Shown here: in pieces, positions 55,876 to 62,835 of the stretch
Numbering within the stretch: position 1 is the stretch's first letter
Layout: every line of letters begins with the position of its first letter
From: Mariniflexile maritimum
Lineage (GTDB): Bacteria; Bacteroidota; Bacteroidia; Flavobacteriales; Flavobacteriaceae
Length of the DNA: 62,835 bases
NCBI RefSeq assembly: GCF_009746565.1
Contig: NZ_WRPN01000015.1
Span: 1 to 62,835 of the forward strand
Direction: 5' to 3'
The notes under the pieces: generated by a model
Told to the model about the DNA's origin: nothing
The model's input: the letters and a program-made list of their open reading frames with translations, nothing else
Database searches by the model: none
Made by a program: the position numbers and the translations under genes

Positions 55876-56022
55876 TTATAATTTAGGTTATCAATTTTAA
55901 TAGGAGTTGCAACAAAGAGTTGGGAAGTTTGTGGCTATTGTTATATCCCAGGTTAAATCAGATTAGGAACAATTGTTCCTGATCCGGATTCATTTGAATC
56001 CAAATGAATCCAATAAAAATAA
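55876..56022. other. Non-coding spacer with two adjacent perfect palindromes
   Basis: AGGAACAATTGTTCCT (55965-55980) is a perfect 16-bp palindrome. Five bases on, GGATTCATTTG (55986-55996) pairs with CAAATGAATCC (56001-56011) around AATC. No gene is found between kbl and 56597 (about 775 bases); the other items there are listed separately. Confidence 0.6.
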
Positions 56023-56056
56023 AAAACACTGATAATCATACGATTAACAGTGTTTT
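56023..56056 (-). terminator. Terminator next to the tRNA remnant
   Basis: AAAACACTG-A-TAATC (56023-56037) pairs with GATTA-A-CAGTGTTTT (56042-56056) with one mismatch and a 4-base loop. On the minus strand it is followed by TTTTTATTTTTATT. No intact minus-strand gene ends before it, but a tRNA 3' remnant lies 24 bases upstream, so it probably once terminated that tRNA. Confidence 0.7.
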
Positions 56057-56079
56057 GATACTTCCTATTTCTAGGTTCG

Positions 56080-56092
56080 TCGGGGTGGCAGG
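56080..56092 (-). other. tRNA 3'-end remnant (Pro-like), possible attachment site
   Basis: The minus strand reads CCTGC-CACCCCG-A: the 3' half of a T-stem, a full 3' acceptor strand and discriminator A, as in tRNA-Pro genes starting CGGGGTG. The T-loop and everything before it are missing; the sequence changes to unrelated DNA at 56093. A terminator follows at 56056-56023. This is what remains at one end when an element integrates into the 3' end of a tRNA gene. The match is only 13 bases, so chance is possible. Confidence 0.45.
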
Positions 56093-56480
56093 CAGAACTC
56101 CCCTAACATATATTTTTAATATTCAAATAGTTACATATTAATTTACTCCTTGGTAACCGAATAGGTAACTTATTTGATAAGACCTTTTGTTCTATTTTGA
56201 TACTAAGATAAGCCTTTTATAAAAGAAAAACTATTTTTAATAAAAATATGATGAATAGATAGAGTGGAGAGTTGAACAATCTTGAGTTTATAAAAGTGAG
56301 CATAACAAAATTACCACTAAACCTTTTATAAGTAAGGTCATGACATATTTTTAAGTGGTATAATAATTTCTGTTTTTCAAATCTAAGCACATTTCTAGGG
56401 TGAAATCGTTATGACAGAACTAACTTTTATGTTTTAAATAACTGTTTTACAGTATTTTACGTGTTTTTACTCAAAAGATT

Positions 56481-56540
56481 CACCGAATAGTACACTAAAG
56501 TCAAAAAGAGCTAAATAAAAGCAAACTGTATTTGTTTTTA
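56481..56540. repeat. Diverged direct repeat, left copy
   Basis: The sequence starting CACCGAATAGTACACTAAAG (56481) recurs, with substitutions, at 56999-57056 (CACCGAATTGCACACCAAAA). Both go on with TCAAAAAGAnCTAA and end in a stretch like TTTGTTTTT. The copies are about 520 bases apart and flank the LuxR-type gene. The stretch 56093-56480 is AT-rich and shows nothing else. Confidence 0.6.
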
Positions 56541-56596
56541 TTTTATAAATATATAATTTTTATTTTAAATAATAACTCTAATAAAAAGTTTTAGGA

Positions 56597-56827
56597 TCAG
56601 TCGAAAAGTTCAACCTCTTCTAAAATTTTCAGTTTTACAGCCTTGGAAACCATATAGTGAGAATTATATCCTAAGGGGACGTTCAATTTCTTTTTAATTC
56701 TTGCGACATAAGTTGAAACGGTTTTTTCGTTTAAACCTAATTCTTTAGATATGGTTTTGTTTTTATACCCTTTTTGAATAAGTTTCAAAACAGCAAGTTC
56801 TCGTTTAGATAGTTTTTTTATTTCCAT
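56597..56827 (-). CDS. Stand-alone LuxR-type (GerE) helix-turn-helix protein
   Basis: 76 residues from the ATG at 56827; the frame is open 3 codons further to a TTG. Nearly the whole protein is the GerE DNA-binding domain: LSKRELAVLKLIQKGYKNKTISKELGLNEKTVSTYVARIKKKLNV, with the usual Glu, Gly and recognition-helix pattern. No receiver or ligand domain is present. It is the last gene of the island reading with transcription, about 300 bases behind the unknown 308-residue protein, and may regulate the island. It could also be the surviving end of a longer regulator. Confidence 0.75.
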   Translation of the reverse strand: MEIKKLSKRELAVLKLIQKGYKNKTISKELGLNEKTVSTYVARIKKKLNVPLGYNSHYMVSKAVKLKILEEVELFD

Positions 56828-56998
56828 TTCAAACAACTTTTTTTATAATTTTTAGATTTCCAAAATTTAGAGCTTGCGCAATTTCTTTTCTATTATTATT
56901 TACCATCGGACTACAATTTAATTGGGATGGCAGAATGAAATTGAATTTCATAAACCACTGTATTTTAACGATTTAAGCATTGCTATTCAAGTATAACA

Positions 56999-57056
56999 CA
57001 CCGAATTGCACACCAAAATCAAAAAGAACTAATTAAAACAAAATTTAATTGTTTTT
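56999..57056. repeat. Diverged direct repeat, right copy
   Basis: Partner of 56481-56540. It lies between the 308-residue protein gene and the LuxR-type gene, where the promoter of the latter should be. Confidence 0.6.
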
Positions 57057-57127
57057 GGTTACATAAAGGTACATATTTCATTAAAACAAATGAAATTTTA
57101 TCGACATAAGGATAAATATTGTTCAAA

Positions 57128-58054
57128 TTATTTAATGCTATTTTCAAAAACAATTTCTGATATAATAAAAGTATTCTCATCAATTGGCTCTCTAGTATAT
57201 TCATTAATATCGGATCCAGAACCAACTCTCCAAATGTCAATATCTCTAAATTTTATTGTCATTAACATTGAAATAAATGTAAATGGTTTTGGACCTAATG
57301 GAGCGATTATTATACTGTATTCCTCTCTAAGTAAATAATATAGTGATGTTAATTCACGCTCAAGAGATAACATATCATCTAATTGAAATGTTATTATCTT
57401 TTTTTTATCTGTTCTATCTAAAAGAGTTGAATTATTTTCCTCTATTTTTTTTACAAATTTATAATCTAATGCTGGTTTGGAATAAATTATATAATATTCT
57501 TTAGGATCTAAATGTTCAATGATACCTTCAGCCTTTCTTTGCTCATATCCAAGACAAACTATTAATGCCTTTGGTTTATCTGTTGGAACAATATATTTAC
57601 CTGGTAAAGGAGCAATTTCTGTATTTGGTTTTGGTTCTAAGGGTTTAGTGAATTTTGATGGAGTATAAATAAAATATACTGTAATAGAATTAAAATCTAA
57701 TTCTTTCTTTCTTAAATATAAAATAATAGTATAATACCATGACTTTGTCATGCAAGAATAATCAACTATAATACATAAATCCTTCTTTGAGTCAACACCT
57801 AGTTCTTGATCTAATATGGTAGATATTTCTTGATGATTTTGTAGTTTTATTTTTTCAATGCTACTATGGTCATGTTTCACCTTATATGAATCTTTATAAA
57901 CAAATAAAATTGATTTAGAGATAGTATTATTTTTAATAATTTTATCATAAGCTGTGAATACTCTTTTTTCATGATTTCCTGCAAATAGAAATAGTGATAT
58001 CTCTTTTTCAGAAATACTATTTATATCAATTTGTTTACCATATTTTATAACCAT
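57128..58054 (-). CDS. Unknown protein with a doubled G-x-E-x-R motif, partner of the AAA ATPase
   Basis: 308 residues; I do not recognise the family. No signal peptide or membrane helix is seen. Two similar segments occur: ISLFLFAGNHEKRVFTAYDKI (motif GNHEKR, residues 26-31) and ALIVCLGYEQRKAEGIIEHL (motif GYEQRK, 169-174). In each a hydrophobic strand runs into G-x-x-E-x-R or G-x-E-x-R and then a helix. After the first, LCIIVDYSCMTKSWYYTIILYL (about 93-114) looks like a strand-Asp-Tyr-Ser-loop-helix unit. I infer two Rossmann-like halves from an internal duplication. It starts 11 bases behind the ATPase gene and is the last gene of the operon, so it is probably the sensor or effector of the system. 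Confidence 0.7.
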   Translation of the reverse strand: MVIKYGKQIDINSISEKEISLFLFAGNHEKRVFTAYDKIIKNNTISKSILFVYKDSYKVKHDHSSIEKIKLQNHQEISTILDQELGVDSKKDLCIIVDYSCMTKSWYYTIILYLRKKELDFNSITVYFIYTPSKFTKPLEPKPNTEIAPLPGKYIVPTDKPKALIVCLGYEQRKAEGIIEHLDPKEYYIIYSKPALDYKFVKKIEENNSTLLDRTDKKKIITFQLDDMLSLERELTSLYYLLREEYSIIIAPLGPKPFTFISMLMTIKFRDIDIWRVGSGSDINEYTREPIDENTFIISEIVFENSIK

Positions 58055-58065
58055 TTCTCTTAATT

Positions 58066-59841
58066 CTAGTTAAATAATGATATTTGACCTGCATCATCTA
58101 ATAAAGTTAAACATTCGCTAAGCTTAGTTTTATTATAAACTCTTAAAGGGATGTTATACAAAATACAAAATATATAAGATAGCTTAAATCTTTTATTTCT
58201 AATTTCGAAATCAAAAGAATCATCATTAGAGTCTAATAAAATAAATGCGCCTTGAGCAACACCTTTCTCAATAAGTTCTACGATATTATCATGGATCTTA
58301 TCATCTGAATTATCAACTAAAAAAGTGCTTTTTGGATCCATCAAAAAATTCTCTCCTAATATCTGATTTTCAAAGTACTTACCCACTCTTTCAATAATAT
58401 CAATTATTGTAAAATTGCAATCTCCTACAGGAATATTGGCAATAACATTTTTATATCTTTTTGACACATTCAATAATTCATCAAACTGTTGTTTTTTATC
58501 AATATTGCCACCATTTGATTTAGAAATAATTGCACTAACAATTCCAATCAACCATCTTGGGTTACCATCACAGATTTTTGAAATCACCTCAATACCAGAA
58601 AAAAGATCTGTAGCTTTTTTTCTACTTCTATATTTAACTTTTTTTCTAACAATGTTTTCTTCGATGAAAAAATTCCTAAAATAAACTATTGGCTTGATCT
58701 TTCTATATAATACATCTTTTTGATTGTCATTAATTGGTATTGGATTTGCTATATCAACATCTTTATTTTCAAGAAAAGATTTAAAAGATTCATCTTTATT
58801 AATTAAACTGATCATTTCCTTATAAAAATCACTCCCTTCACTATAACTATCAGAAGTTTTATTATAAATATCATTAGAGCCAAATACTTTAACTAGATTT
58901 GAATTACTTGGAAGAAAAGACTTAATTATTTTTTTTGAGAATTCTTCATTATCTTTCGATATCCACATTTTTATGAGTTCGACATCATTTCCAGGAGTAG
59001 CTCCATAATCAGACAATAATGACTTTTCCAAAGCAGAAGGTAATATTGGACTAGCACTCAATTTATATAATAAGTATTGAGTTCTACTTCTAAGTGAAAT
59101 AAACAGTTTCTGTTGCAGCCATATGGGTGCAAATTCTAATTCATCAAAACATAGAGCCCACTTCTTTTTTTCTTCTATTCCATAAATACGTTCAAATTTG
59201 GGAATAATTAATTCTAGTGATGTTTCGAAGGACAAATTATAGTAGTCAGGTACGTCTATTTTATCACCAGGAGCATAATTAAAAATCACTTGTTGAATAA
59301 ATTGATTTACACTGTCTATTCTATCATTAAGTGCTTCTTTGACATATTTTAGTTTAGGAATAGTATTTGATAATTTCCATGCTTTAATTAAATGACTACA
59401 TAGTTCAATTTCCTTTTTCTCATCTTTATTTTTTAATTCAATATTTATAATATTTAAAAATGAATCACAAAGAGATGTAAAAACATTACTACTAACGGCA
59501 AAATGTGAAACCATATCAGCAAAGGTTCCATAGGCTTCTAATTGACTACCGTATGTTAAGTTTTTCACATTCCAGTATATATCTGTAGATATATAAATTC
59601 CATAAAAGGGGATATTATTTCTAATATCTTCAGCTTTACTATCTGAATTCCATGCATGTAAGGCAGGAATTGTTAACATTTTCATTAGAGTAGTTTTACC
59701 ACAACCACGAGCTCCTAAAATAATAGAATGATTATTCTTTACTAGCTTGTCAAAGCTTTCTGACCAAATAAATCTTTCAGCCACTTCTTTAGGTGCTAAA
59801 TGTCTGGCATTATAACTTATAAGAAAATTATTAGTTTCCAT
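58066..59841 (-). CDS. AAA/STAND-type ATPase, ORC/Cdc6-like
   Basis: 591 residues. Walker A is GARGCGKTTLMK (residues 43-54) after a short N-terminal FIWSESFDKLV, as in ORC/Cdc6-like P-loop proteins. Walker B is WALCFDELEFAP (about 229-240), and ICDGNPRWLIGIVSAI (about 424) resembles the sensor 2/GxPR region that starts the winged-helix part. The C-terminal ~150 residues have no clear domain. It overlaps the phosphoesterase gene by 11 bases, so the two are translationally coupled. In defence systems such ATPases sense or couple to an effector; here this is inference. Confidence 0.82.
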   Translation of the reverse strand: METNNFLISYNARHLAPKEVAERFIWSESFDKLVKNNHSIILGARGCGKTTLMKMLTIPALHAWNSDSKAEDIRNNIPFYGIYISTDIYWNVKNLTYGSQLEAYGTFADMVSHFAVSSNVFTSLCDSFLNIINIELKNKDEKKEIELCSHLIKAWKLSNTIPKLKYVKEALNDRIDSVNQFIQQVIFNYAPGDKIDVPDYYNLSFETSLELIIPKFERIYGIEEKKKWALCFDELEFAPIWLQQKLFISLRSRTQYLLYKLSASPILPSALEKSLLSDYGATPGNDVELIKMWISKDNEEFSKKIIKSFLPSNSNLVKVFGSNDIYNKTSDSYSEGSDFYKEMISLINKDESFKSFLENKDVDIANPIPINDNQKDVLYRKIKPIVYFRNFFIEENIVRKKVKYRSRKKATDLFSGIEVISKICDGNPRWLIGIVSAIISKSNGGNIDKKQQFDELLNVSKRYKNVIANIPVGDCNFTIIDIIERVGKYFENQILGENFLMDPKSTFLVDNSDDKIHDNIVELIEKGVAQGAFILLDSNDDSFDFEIRNKRFKLSYIFCILYNIPLRVYNKTKLSECLTLLDDAGQISLFN

Positions 59842-61018
59842 CTATGGCTTTTGTATTACTTATTATTTCTGGAATTTGAGAAAGCTTTCCAGAAAGTATT
59901 AACCCCTCATCTTTCAATTTCAACTCTATATGTTTTGCTTCATTTGGTGTTAGATATTCAATATCCGGAATGGCTTTAACTACATCTGACCAATTTTTAA
60001 CGGTCTCATTTCCAACTTCAGCTATAATTTTATCGACCACATCTTGCAAAATTCCATCAAATCCAAACCCCGTATATGAATCAAAACCCTCATCATCATT
60101 TACTATTTTCCAACCATTTTTTGGTATAAAAGTCCATGTGGTTATTCTTCCTTTTGATGGTTTTCCCTTAGTTTTAACTAAGTCTATCTTATGAAATGTA
60201 TTTCTTCGACTAGTCCAGCCTAAATTTGAGATAGCTGAAAAACTACCTGATGACAGTATTGGTATTTTTGTTCCAGATGAATGAAAATTATGGTATCTCA
60301 ATAATGGATCATGTTTATGTCCGTGTATAAACAAATCAAAATTATATTTACCTAAAACCTCCAAAAGTGCATCTCCATTGATAATTTTATCCTCTTCTCC
60401 TAATTTAAAACGAGAATGATCTATCGGATGATGATGTGCAAGTGCTATATTTATTTTATCATCATTATGTTTTACCAAATATTCATCTATGTAGTCTATT
60501 AGGTCCTCACCTACTTTACCACCTCCTGAAGCCTTCTTATTGTGATGATAATGAGAGCTGTTAATTACAAGAATTCTATAATCATCAGCTTCAATAAATA
60601 CACACCCTTTTGACCAAAACTTATCACAGTCGTCATCGTCTTTTAAAGGAAACCCTTTTTTAATACCTTTTGCAATTTCCAAACTATAATTTGAAAATGT
60701 TTCATATGAATCAACATCATGATTTCCTAAAGTAGCTATAACTTCTTTGCCTTCTAATTCTTTATTGATTTCTAGAGTGAAATCCCAACCAGAAATAAAA
60801 CCTTGTGCATCTGTTTTGTTCGTGAAATCTCCAGGACACAAAGTAAGATCAACTTTTATTTTCTCTTTTTTTATAATCTTTAAGATACTTTCTACTGGAT
60901 GATTGTTTGGATCAGTTCTTAGCATATTAGAAGTTAAATATGTATCCTTAGAACTAGATTCACTGTAATGACAATGCATATCACTAATTATTGCAATACT
61001 TAATTTTTTTGAACTCAT
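59831..61018 (-). CDS. Calcineurin-like metallophosphoesterase
   Basis: 395 residues with all five metal-binding blocks: DMH (residues 13-15), GD (63-64), GNHD (98-101), HHH (195-197) and GHKH (233-236). The order and spacing match class III cyclic-nucleotide phosphodiesterases (CpdA-like) better than SbcD/Mre11. About 130 residues follow the catalytic domain, containing KNWSDVVKAIPDIEYLTPNEAKHIELKLKDEG, and may bind a partner. It starts 1 base after the methyltransferase stop and overlaps the ATPase gene. It could be a nuclease or a nucleotide-signal phosphodiesterase. Confidence 0.88.
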   Translation of the reverse strand: MSSKKLSIAIISDMHCHYSESSSKDTYLTSNMLRTDPNNHPVESILKIIKKEKIKVDLTLCPGDFTNKTDAQGFISGWDFTLEINKELEGKEVIATLGNHDVDSYETFSNYSLEIAKGIKKGFPLKDDDDCDKFWSKGCVFIEADDYRILVINSSHYHHNKKASGGGKVGEDLIDYIDEYLVKHNDDKINIALAHHHPIDHSRFKLGEEDKIINGDALLEVLGKYNFDLFIHGHKHDPLLRYHNFHSSGTKIPILSSGSFSAISNLGWTSRRNTFHKIDLVKTKGKPSKGRITTWTFIPKNGWKIVNDDEGFDSYTGFGFDGILQDVVDKIIAEVGNETVKNWSDVVKAIPDIEYLTPNEAKHIELKLKDEGLILSGKLSQIPEIISNTKAIDGN

Positions 61019-61019
61019 A

Positions 61020-61859
61020 TTAAATTGTATTGCATATAATTAATTCATTATACATCCCTCTAGTCTTGTTACGACCTCCTACTTGGCTATATCTTGATTT
61101 AATAAATATTTTTCCCATTCCTTTATACAAATCAAGTATAGAATGATGGCTCGCATTTGTTAAAATAAAATATGCTCCCTTATTATTTATGGCTTGAATA
61201 AAATCCCTTAATCTTTCTTGGTCATCCCAGGAAAATAATTTTTGGTTATATTCAATAAACCCATTATTCTCATGTGCTATCGTATATGGTGGGTCTAAAA
61301 AAACCAAATCATCTTTTTTGATATTTTCTAAAGTTTCTTTAAAATCTATAGCTTTAATGGTAACATTTTGTAATGCTTTACTAACTAATCTTAAATTATC
61401 TTCAGAAACTATATCTACATTTTTTCTTTTACCATAAGGCACATTATATATTCCTTTACTATTAACTCTATAAATACCATTAAAAGAACATTTATTCAAA
61501 TAAATAAACTTTGCTGCTTTTGTATGAGATTTATTAGTTCTAGCCTTTCTAATTCTATAGAATTCTTCTTCTGTATTTTTTAATAGCTTGAGAGTTTTAA
61601 TTAATAGTTCAACGTTATCTCTTATTTCTATATATGTCTCAATTAAATCATTGTTAATATCATACAGATATGCTTCTCCATTTTTATCAATAGAAAAAAA
61701 TACAGATCCGCCTCCTAAAAAGCATTCATGATAATTGTTAAAGTTGTTAGGGAGATATTTTGTAAGTCCGTCTTTTATAAGCCAGTTTTTAGATCCAGTC
61801 CATCTCAAAAAAGGCTTACATTTGGCTTTATATAAAATAGGTGTATTAATTTCTTTCAT
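61020..61859 (-). CDS. D12-class (Dam-type) adenine-specific DNA methyltransferase
   Basis: 279 residues, normal for the family. The AdoMet motif is in KPFLRWTGSKNWLIKDGLTKYLP (residues 15-37) with HECFLGGGSVFFSI (44-57), and the catalytic motif is LVFLDPPY (about 190). The order motif I, target domain, motif IV is that of Dam/DpnM-type enzymes. No restriction endonuclease gene is adjacent. It is the first gene of the four-gene operon and may mark host DNA as self; regulation of the others or simple hitch-hiking are alternatives. Confidence 0.9.
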   Translation of the reverse strand: MKEINTPILYKAKCKPFLRWTGSKNWLIKDGLTKYLPNNFNNYHECFLGGGSVFFSIDKNGEAYLYDINNDLIETYIEIRDNVELLIKTLKLLKNTEEEFYRIRKARTNKSHTKAAKFIYLNKCSFNGIYRVNSKGIYNVPYGKRKNVDIVSEDNLRLVSKALQNVTIKAIDFKETLENIKKDDLVFLDPPYTIAHENNGFIEYNQKLFSWDDQERLRDFIQAINNKGAYFILTNASHHSILDLYKGMGKIFIKSRYSQVGGRNKTRGMYNELIICNTI

Positions 61860-61873
61860 AATTATAACTGTCT

Positions 61874-61881
61874 CAAATATA
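61874..61881 (-). promoter_or_regulatory. -7 element of the methyltransferase operon
   Basis: TATATTTG on the minus strand fully matches TAnnTTTG and lies 14 bases before the ATG at 61859. No clear TTG is seen at -33. It suggests that the methyltransferase-phosphoesterase-ATPase-unknown operon has its own start, apart from the HEPN-type gene upstream. The rest of 61882-61991 shows nothing else. Confidence 0.4.
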
Positions 61882-61991: not shown

Positions 61992-62540
61992 TTATAAATT
62001 TTCTTCTGCTTCAATTAAATTTAAAAGTAAAACATCTGTCAAATTAGCACCAATTTGAACTAAAATTCTATTTCGTTCATATTGTAATTCTCCTAGATCT
62101 ATTTTTCTTCCATGGAACAAGTTATCTCTTATTTGTTTAATAATAGAGAATAAAGCTTTGAAATTAGTAGCGTTCCAATTCTCTGCGTGTACAATTTCTT
62201 CTTGATTATCTTCAATCTCTTCTTTTTCAAATAATTCAGATCGATATTTTAAAAAATAAGTGGCTCTAAGAATGTTTAGTGTTGGTTCAAAATTATTATT
62301 TGAAGCACCAACAGGCCTCATAATAGCTAATTCTTTTGCAATATTTTTAATTTCATTCATCTGCCAATAAAAATCACCATGATTATTGCAAAATAGTTGC
62401 GCACCATTATTTCTTCCAAATTTTCTTTTCCAATAAGATTCTAACCATTCATAGTTTTCATGAAATCTTCTTCTTATTTCTTTATTTTCTAAATCTTGAT
62501 TTAATCTCTCGATAAAATCTCTTATTTCATATGAAACCAT
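61992..62540 (-). CDS. Small protein with a HEPN-type R-x4-H motif
   Basis: 182 residues, mostly helical by eye, with no signal peptide. The C-terminal part reads FKALFSIIKQIRDNLFHGRKIDL; R138-DNLF-H143 is the R-x4-H motif of HEPN RNases, and NLFHG is the form often seen in Apea-like HEPN proteins. The N-terminal half (FHENYEWLESYWKRKFGRNNGAQLF) is not recognised. HEPN proteins of defence islands often cut RNA on activation. It lies 132 bases upstream of the methyltransferase and may be a separate unit. Confidence 0.65.
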   Translation of the reverse strand: MVSYEIRDFIERLNQDLENKEIRRRFHENYEWLESYWKRKFGRNNGAQLFCNNHGDFYWQMNEIKNIAKELAIMRPVGASNNNFEPTLNILRATYFLKYRSELFEKEEIEDNQEEIVHAENWNATNFKALFSIIKQIRDNLFHGRKIDLGELQYERNRILVQIGANLTDVLLLNLIEAEENL

Positions 62541-62713
62541 AGTAACTGCTTTAATTCTATGTAAAAGTAAACATTTTCATTCCACACATATTACGCTTCC
62601 CTTCTACGTCATCGCATAAAAAATATTCCAATAACATTGTACAAGAAACTTTTAAGAATAAATTTTTTCAAGAACCTGTAGTTACTAATTTCACTTTTAA
62701 CCAAAGTTCAATT

Positions 62714-62835
62714 TGTAAGCTTCCCCAAAATTCGGCCATTTAAAAATAGAATTCGACAAGCGACGCAGGAGCGCGTTCAGTAAGAATTATTAAATTTAAA
62801 TCCGAAAACTTATGAAGACAACCCATTTTACAGAA
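62714..62835 (+). mobile_element. Left end of an IS3-like insertion sequence (partial, runs off the right edge)
   Basis: An ATG at 62812 opens a frame to the edge coding MKTTHFTE, which closely resembles the start of IS3-family OrfA proteins (M-K-x-x-x-F-T-E-x-Q-I-V). Upstream, TGTAAGCTTCCCCAAAATTC (from 62714) could be the terminal inverted repeat, since IS3-type ends often begin with TG. Only 8 codons are visible, so the call is tentative. Between 62541 and 62713 I see no gene. Confidence 0.4.

What the first reader, a model, noticed from the sequence alone, without database searches (positions are those of the whole stretch)
57128..61859. Candidate undescribed four-gene system: Dam-type methyltransferase, metallophosphoesterase, ORC/Cdc6-like ATPase, doubled-motif protein
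Seen: four minus-strand genes with spacings of 1, -11 and 11 bases and their own -7 element (TATATTTG), next to a probable integration site and an IS. Established: D12 methyltransferases, calcineurin-like phosphoesterases and STAND/ORC ATPases each occur in antiviral systems, and self-marking methylation is used by restriction and BREX/DISARM-type systems. Inference: the methylase marks host DNA, the ATPase and the 308-residue protein sense, and the phosphoesterase cuts nucleic acid or a nucleotide signal. I do not match this gene set to a named defence system I know.
Basis: partly seen in the sequence, partly recalled or inferred. Interest (0 to 1): 0.88.

Follow-up and report, generated by a model that had tools for sequence, protein, structure and literature searches.

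The report
Four-gene methylation-linked CARF defence operon
A compact four-gene operon, found in the same order in distantly related bacteria, looks like an unnamed antiviral system that marks the cell's own DNA and is controlled by a nucleotide-sensing CARF protein, with an enzyme part that relatives swap for other enzymes.

The parts
61020..61859 (-). Dam/DpnM-type N6-adenine DNA methyltransferase (D12 class), first gene; predicted GATC specificity
   Evidence: PF02086 5.8e-48; TIGR00571 dam 1.2e-66 over its cut-off; best solved relative DpnM 2dpm 3.2e-49, sharing DPPY and NGxYR; only PF02086 match in the genome
59831..61018 (-). Metallophosphoesterase with C-terminal wHTH; predicted effector or nucleotide-processing enzyme
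   Evidence: PF00149 1.8e-13, PF24408 2.3e-10; metal-site residues D13 H15 D64 N99 H100 H195 H232 H234 invariant in the 9 MPE-type loci; nearest solved Lmo2642 2xmo 2e-12
58066..59841 (-). ORC-CDC6-like P-loop ATPase
   Evidence: PF24389 4.8e-106 full length; Walker A G43..GKT50, Walker B D233 E234 and R251 invariant in the 9 loci
57128..58054 (-). CARF6 protein with two Rossmann-like halves; predicted ligand sensor
61874..61881 (-). TATATTTG, possible Bacteroidota -7 promoter element of the operon
   Evidence: read from the sequence; consensus match only
61992..62540 (-). 182-aa ORF upstream of the operon, with an RDNLFHG stretch reminiscent of HEPN by eye; not a core part
   Evidence: one sub-threshold Pfam match (SPO22, 0.057), none in PADLOC or NCBIfam; no match in 72,556 plasmids

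Best explanation
A mobile, methylation-guarded defence operon. The Dam/DpnM-type methylase marks the host's own DNA, probably at GATC (inferred). The ORC-CDC6-like ATPase and the CARF6 protein form the sensing and switching core: the ATPase is expected to assemble on or monitor DNA that lacks the mark, or a replication structure, and CARF6 binds a nucleotide ligand that appears in infection (inferred). Once triggered, the enzyme in the second slot acts. Here that is a metal-dependent phosphoesterase that cuts nucleic acid, nucleotides or the signal itself; in sister systems it is a phosphoribosyltransferase or a protein kinase. Shown: gene families, conserved order, co-occurrence, slot exchange, conserved catalytic residues, CARF fold of the C-terminal half of the model. 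Inferred: self-marking, trigger, effector role, defence function.
For: Same four-gene order in 7 of 9 MPE-type loci (the window, a second genome of its phylum, Alpha- and Betaproteobacteria, Actinomycetota); the other 2 keep MPE-ATPase-CARF6. In 395 genomes of the window's phylum PF24408 occurs in 3, all three beside one of the 4 full-length PF24389 genes and a CARF6 gene; hypergeometric 3.9e-7 for the genomes alone. Among 72,556 plasmids the ATPase and the MPE hit the same 5 records. Slot exchange: MPE 9, PRTase-CE 9, kinase 3, ATPase alone 1 of 22 loci typed. A methylase lies directly upstream in 18 of the 21 with a slot enzyme (in pieces in L064 and L078) and, by annotation, directly downstream in 1. 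CARF6 identity. Methylase close to DpnM. Patchy, on plasmids and in a low-GC island. Of 15 hand-picked neighbour proteins scanned in PADLOC, 9 match some defence model at 0.001, among them a Type IV and a Type II restriction enzyme, a CHAT protein and a SIR2 protein; 6 match none.
Against: No phage assay exists. The ligand of CARF6 has no visible source: no cyclase, CD-NTase or Cas10 was matched among the six window proteins searched. The methylase is the loosest member: not found beside the Pseudoalteromonas locus, on the opposite strand 3 kb away in G138, and its distances do not track the ATPase's once Paucibacter is left out (r -0.19, 6 loci); ATPase-CARF6 also falls to r 0.26. Defence neighbours were hand-picked, without a control. 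The structure model is modest; Foldseek's own scores are low over the whole chain (best E 1.1e-4, TM 0.27, rmsd 8.2), and the N-terminal half was not tested alone. Two of the three kinase domains are under Pfam's cut-off (28.8 and 29.1 against 31.7 bits).
Confidence: 0.6

Rival explanations
1. A signalling system in which the slot enzyme makes or breaks a nucleotide signal (PRTase makes it, phosphoesterase trims or destroys it) and CARF6 is its receiver; the ATPase is the sensor and the killing step lies in host targets.
For: The top fold matches are CARF proteins, several of them solved with cyclic oligoadenylates. PRTase and phosphoesterase both act on nucleotides; a Ter-system passage proposes PRTase plus phosphoesterase nucleotide signals. 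thyX, dUTPase or MazG genes lie near 6 loci.
Against: A kinase in the same slot does not fit a nucleotide-signal enzyme. No separate effector gene is conserved in the typed loci.
Confidence: 0.2
2. An epigenetic or replication-control module of plasmids and islands: methylase plus ORC-CDC6-like ATPase regulating replication or copy number, not defence.
For: Carried on plasmids; ATPase resembles initiator-type ATPases (ORC4 matches limited to the P-loop).
Confidence: 0.1
3. A restriction-modification derivative in which the MPE is the nuclease that cuts unmethylated GATC DNA and the ATPase drives it, with CARF6 only structural.
For: Methylase near DpnM; MPE profile also touches SbcD nucleases weakly (9.5e-4); in G138 a D12 methylase plus Type II restriction enzyme pair sits 3 kb from the MPE-ATPase-CARF6 genes.
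Against: PRTase-CE and kinase in the same slot are not nucleases; no restriction-enzyme model among the window proteins.
Confidence: 0.1

Closest known systems
BREX / Pgl systems
   Same: Combine a DNA methylase, an ORC-Cdc6/STAND-type ATPase, and a phosphatase or Ser/Thr kinase (ATPase and kinase passages seen in PMC12839542; the roles of PglX and PglZ recalled)
   Different: No BREX model among the PADLOC hits of the window proteins; methylase is D12-class, phosphatase is calcineurin-type, and a CARF6 protein is added
CARF6 families of PADLOC (after Makarova et al. 2020, recalled, paper not held)
   Same: Fourth protein is a clear member of PDLC01915; PADLOC also lists a CARF-kinase-AAA fusion (PDLC01925) that matches the kinase-type loci
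   Different: The PADLOC hits are single-protein families; none names a system of methylase, MPE or PRTase-CE, ATPase and CARF6
Pfam domains ORC-CDC6-like PF24389, PRTase-CE PF24390, wHTH-Calcineurin_assc PF24408
   Same: Parts of these loci carry these names, so curators knew the domains, probably from one study (inference from the neighbouring accessions)
   Different: No held paper uses these names for this operon: of the 2 papers found by five such names, one is the BREX paper and one an unrelated false match
DpnII-type methylase DpnM
   Same: Closest solved relative of the methylase, 3.2e-49, shared motifs
   Different: No restriction enzyme partner in the window operon
PD-Lambda-5 (PADLOC)
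   Same: The methylase matches model PD-Lambda-5_B, 5.7e-11, residues 18-261
   Different: Many Type II methylase models score far better (best 5.1e-96); no other PD-Lambda-5 model among the hits of the six proteins
DS9_1 anti-phage phosphoesterase (NCBIfam NF053862)
   Same: Related phosphoesterase domain, 3e-14
   Different: Far below its cut-off (52.7 against 420 bits)

Membership tests
CARF superfamily (CARF6) | Profile match to a CARF6 family over the whole protein | tested here: met
   PDLC01915 5.9e-107, residues 1-305 of 308
CARF superfamily (CARF6) | CARF Rossmann fold | tested here: met
CARF superfamily (CARF6) | Binding of a cyclic oligonucleotide | not testable with these tools
   needs a binding assay
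BREX | PglZ-type phosphatase, BrxC/PglY ATPase, PglX methylase | tested here: not met
   no such model among the PADLOC hits of the six window proteins searched
Type II restriction-modification | Methylase with cognate restriction endonuclease in the operon | tested here: not met
   methylase met; no restriction-enzyme model among six window proteins; a methylase-enzyme pair occurs as a neighbour in G138
CBASS / Type III CRISPR signalling | CD-NTase or Cas10 signal synthase beside the CARF gene | tested here: inconclusive
   none among the six window proteins; the contig ends 976 bases upstream of the methylase, and only chosen neighbours of the relatives were scanned
MADS | mad1-mad8 gene set | tested here: not met
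   of the four operon proteins only the ATPase touches a mad model: mad8, 1.2e-4, P-loop region; kinase-type L035 touches mad6, 4.1e-14
DS9_1 anti-phage phosphoesterase | score over the curated cut-off | tested here: not met
   52.7 bits against 420
D12/Dam methylases | family score over cut-off, DPPY catalytic motif | tested here: met
   TIGR00571 225.1 against 114.85 bits; D189-P-P-Y192 invariant in 8 methylases

The most novel reading that the evidence does not exclude
This is one member of an unnamed class of defence systems: a chassis of DNA methylase, ORC-CDC6-like ATPase and CARF6 sensor into which evolution plugs different enzymes (phosphoesterase, phosphoribosyltransferase, kinase), and in which CARF6 reads a nucleotide cue that is not made by CRISPR or CBASS synthases.
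Probability: 0.4. Interest if true: 0.82.

Novelty: new variant of a known kind. Interest (0 to 1): 0.64.

Why it matters
If true, it links DNA self-marking, known from restriction and BREX, to CARF nucleotide sensing, known from CRISPR, in one small portable operon, and it does so without a recognised signal synthase. The exchangeable enzyme slot offers a natural experiment: one sensing core driving three different chemistries. The predicted GATC mark makes the self/non-self step directly testable.

Tried and rejected
Prophage replication module: rejected; the ATPase finds 0 of 50,697 phage records, and none of 395 pattern-matched viral stretches encodes a relative. Known named system: PADLOC, NCBIfam and Pfam gave family names only. 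Chance neighbours: rejected by recurrence at low identity. thyX as a core part: not kept; annotated near 4 of the 7 annotated PRTase- or kinase-type plasmid loci (gene tables incomplete) and 0 of the 4 MPE-type ones opened.

Rarity: the ATPase subfamily was found only in the starting genome itself among 398 genomes of the Paucibacter phylum and 296 of the Nocardioides phylum, at E 1e-15; only a few candidates per genome were scored, so misses are possible. Known misses: one search did not list G164 or G078, whose CARF6 parts were seen; my profiles missed the L062 ATPase and the L061 methylase. One search lists 102 of 395 genomes at E 0.001, but most matches cover little more than the P-loop; 25 genomes pass the cut-off and 4 matches are full length. 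One search is partly circular: most profiles were built from the loci they then matched; for PRTase-CE only L063, L078 (a near twin of L064) and L079 were outside the seed. Not opened or typed: hits H5, H15, H21.

Distance-matrix test: strong with Paucibacter (r 0.75-0.85), but this leans on the close Cupriavidus-Paucibacter pair; without it MPE-ATPase 0.64, MPE-CARF 0.63, CARF-methylase 0.46, MPE-methylase 0.46, ATPase-CARF 0.26, ATPase-methylase -0.19.

The 'viral' fold library was not searched.

Phylum of the window: no tool names it. The call 'Bacteroidota' rests on the three best plasmid matches of the neighbouring kbl gene (Phocaeicola, Parabacteroides, Bacteroides, 67-70% identity; E. 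coli follows at 65.5%) and the -7 element; it is inference.
Full report
What is there. The four minus-strand ORFs exist as described: methylase 61020-61859, metallophosphoesterase (MPE) 59831-61018, ATPase 58066-59841, 308-aa protein 57128-58054, with gaps of 1, -11 and 11 bases. The window is a whole contig, C7 of genome G000. The stretch is 27.7% GC against 38.8% for window 1-55821. It lies between a place whose sequence (56013-56092) recurs at many positions in relatives and a contig end (62713-62835) that recurs at three other places of the genome, so it is probably an acquired island beside an insertion element.

Does the set recur? Yes. Of 395 genomes of the window's phylum, 4 have a full-length PF24389 match, 3 have PF24408 and 4 have a CARF6 match to my profile. 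Three genomes (G000, G312, G138) have all three, side by side. Of 72,556 plasmids, the ATPase finds 5 records and the MPE the same 5; four of the five were opened, the fifth is a second S. meliloti plasmid with the same identity values. The window's CARF6 as a query finds only 1 of the 5, though my profile finds the gene in all four opened: it diverges fast. A genome scan added Paucibacter and Nocardioides. In all, 9 MPE-type loci, the window included, were typed: 7 with methylase-MPE-ATPase-CARF6, gaps between -17 and +11 bases, and 2 without an adjacent methylase. In Pseudoalteromonas no D12 methylase was found in the fetched stretch; the record annotates a 198-aa SAM methyltransferase about 3.7 kb upstream. 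G138 has a D12 methylase on the other strand 3 kb away, beside a Type II restriction enzyme (PDLC03513 4.5e-142).

The slot. The wider PF24389 loci show the same frame with another enzyme in the second place. G164 has a different DNA methylase, PRTase-CE (PF24390 7.4e-62), ATPase and CARF6. A plasmid search with its ATPase gave 10 records, of which 8 were opened. All 8 have PRTase-CE and CARF6 by my profiles, which were built in part from the same loci; 5 were also checked in Pfam for PRTase-CE and 5 in PADLOC for CARF6, all positive. Two genomes of the window's phylum (G078, G259) and one Bradyrhizobium plasmid have a Ser/Thr kinase domain in that role, fused to the ATPase or beside it; two of the three are under Pfam's kinase cut-off. 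Tally of 22 loci typed: MPE 9, PRTase-CE 9, kinase 3, ATPase alone 1 (G266). The Bradyrhizobium ATPase was missed by my profiles but found by Pfam (2.4e-24). A methylase lies directly upstream in 18 of the 21 and, by annotation, directly downstream in 1. In three Rhizobium plasmids the ATPase gene is in pieces, in two of them the methylase gene too.

How it probably works. Constant parts (ATPase, CARF6, usually a methylase) and one exchangeable enzyme point to a sensing chassis with a plug-in effector. The methylase marks self DNA; the ATPase and CARF6 decide; the enzyme acts. BREX and Pgl show a similar mix of methylase, ORC/STAND ATPase, kinase and phosphatase (ATPase and kinase passages of PMC12839542 seen, the rest recalled), but no BREX model matches here, so this is likeness of logic, not membership. 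What the CARF6 ligand is remains open: no synthase was found among the window proteins searched. The exchange of a phosphoesterase for a PRTase or a kinase argues against a simple nuclease reading. thyX (L058, L059, L062, L064), dUTPase (L061) and MazG (L040) nearby hint at nucleotide pools, but this was not controlled.

Defence context. I scanned 15 hand-picked neighbour proteins in PADLOC: 6 had no match at 0.001 and 9 had one. The clear ones are a Type IV restriction enzyme next to CARF6 in Pseudoalteromonas, convergent (7e-209), and a Type II restriction enzyme in G138 (4.5e-142). Partial ones are a SIR2 protein of Dsr1 type in Rhizobium (4.9e-59), a Schlafen-like protein in Cupriavidus (pAgo model, 1.3e-20) and a CHAT protein in Methylobacterium (SAVED_CHAT, 3e-12); the other four are weak. 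Without a random control this supports but does not prove a defence role.

Print. Ten text searches were made. The names CARF6, PRTase-CE, wHTH-Calcineurin, wHTH-PRTase and ORC-CDC6-like bring up 2 papers, one on BREX and one unrelated. DefensePredictor (PMC13092281) has no occurrence of phosphoesterase, calcineurin, CARF, ORC, DS9 or Dam at a word start in its main text (searched for terms, not read). Passages only were seen of PMC12839542, PMC11090510, PMC8565338, PMC12458937, PMC9503650 and PMC7824862. The CARF classification of 2020 and the J. Bacteriol. 2020 survey of immune components, both recalled, are not held and may contain part of this. Hence 'new variant of a known kind', not 'categorically new'.

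Noticed in passing
window 61992-62540: 182-aa ORF just upstream on the same strand, without a family match over threshold; an RDNLFHG stretch reminds of HEPN by eye.
   Followed up: partly
window 56013-56092: About 80 bases that recur at scattered positions in related genomes (up to 95% identity) and end in a tRNA-like GGGGTGGCAGG by eye: likely a recombination or attachment site.
   Followed up: partly
window 56411-56564 and 56999-57085: Two further stretches that recur in relatives and share a short repeat by eye (not listed by the repeat finder), near the small HTH gene 56597-56836; possible cassette boundaries.
   Followed up: no
L033 3025-5182: G138 lacks its own adjacent methylase but carries a D12 methylase plus Type II restriction enzyme pair 3 kb away; the neighbour may supply the mark.
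   Followed up: partly
L058, L059, L062, L064, L061, L040: thyX (first four), dUTP diphosphatase (L061) or MazG (L040) genes lie near these loci, hinting at nucleotide-pool chemistry.
   Followed up: partly
L064, L078, L079: In three Rhizobium plasmids the ATPase gene is in two or three pieces while PRTase-CE and CARF6 stay open.
   Followed up: no
window 62713-62835: Contig end repeated at three other places in the assembly (C1 twice, C17; two of these at contig starts) and partly at four more: probable multi-copy insertion element that broke the assembly.
   Followed up: yes
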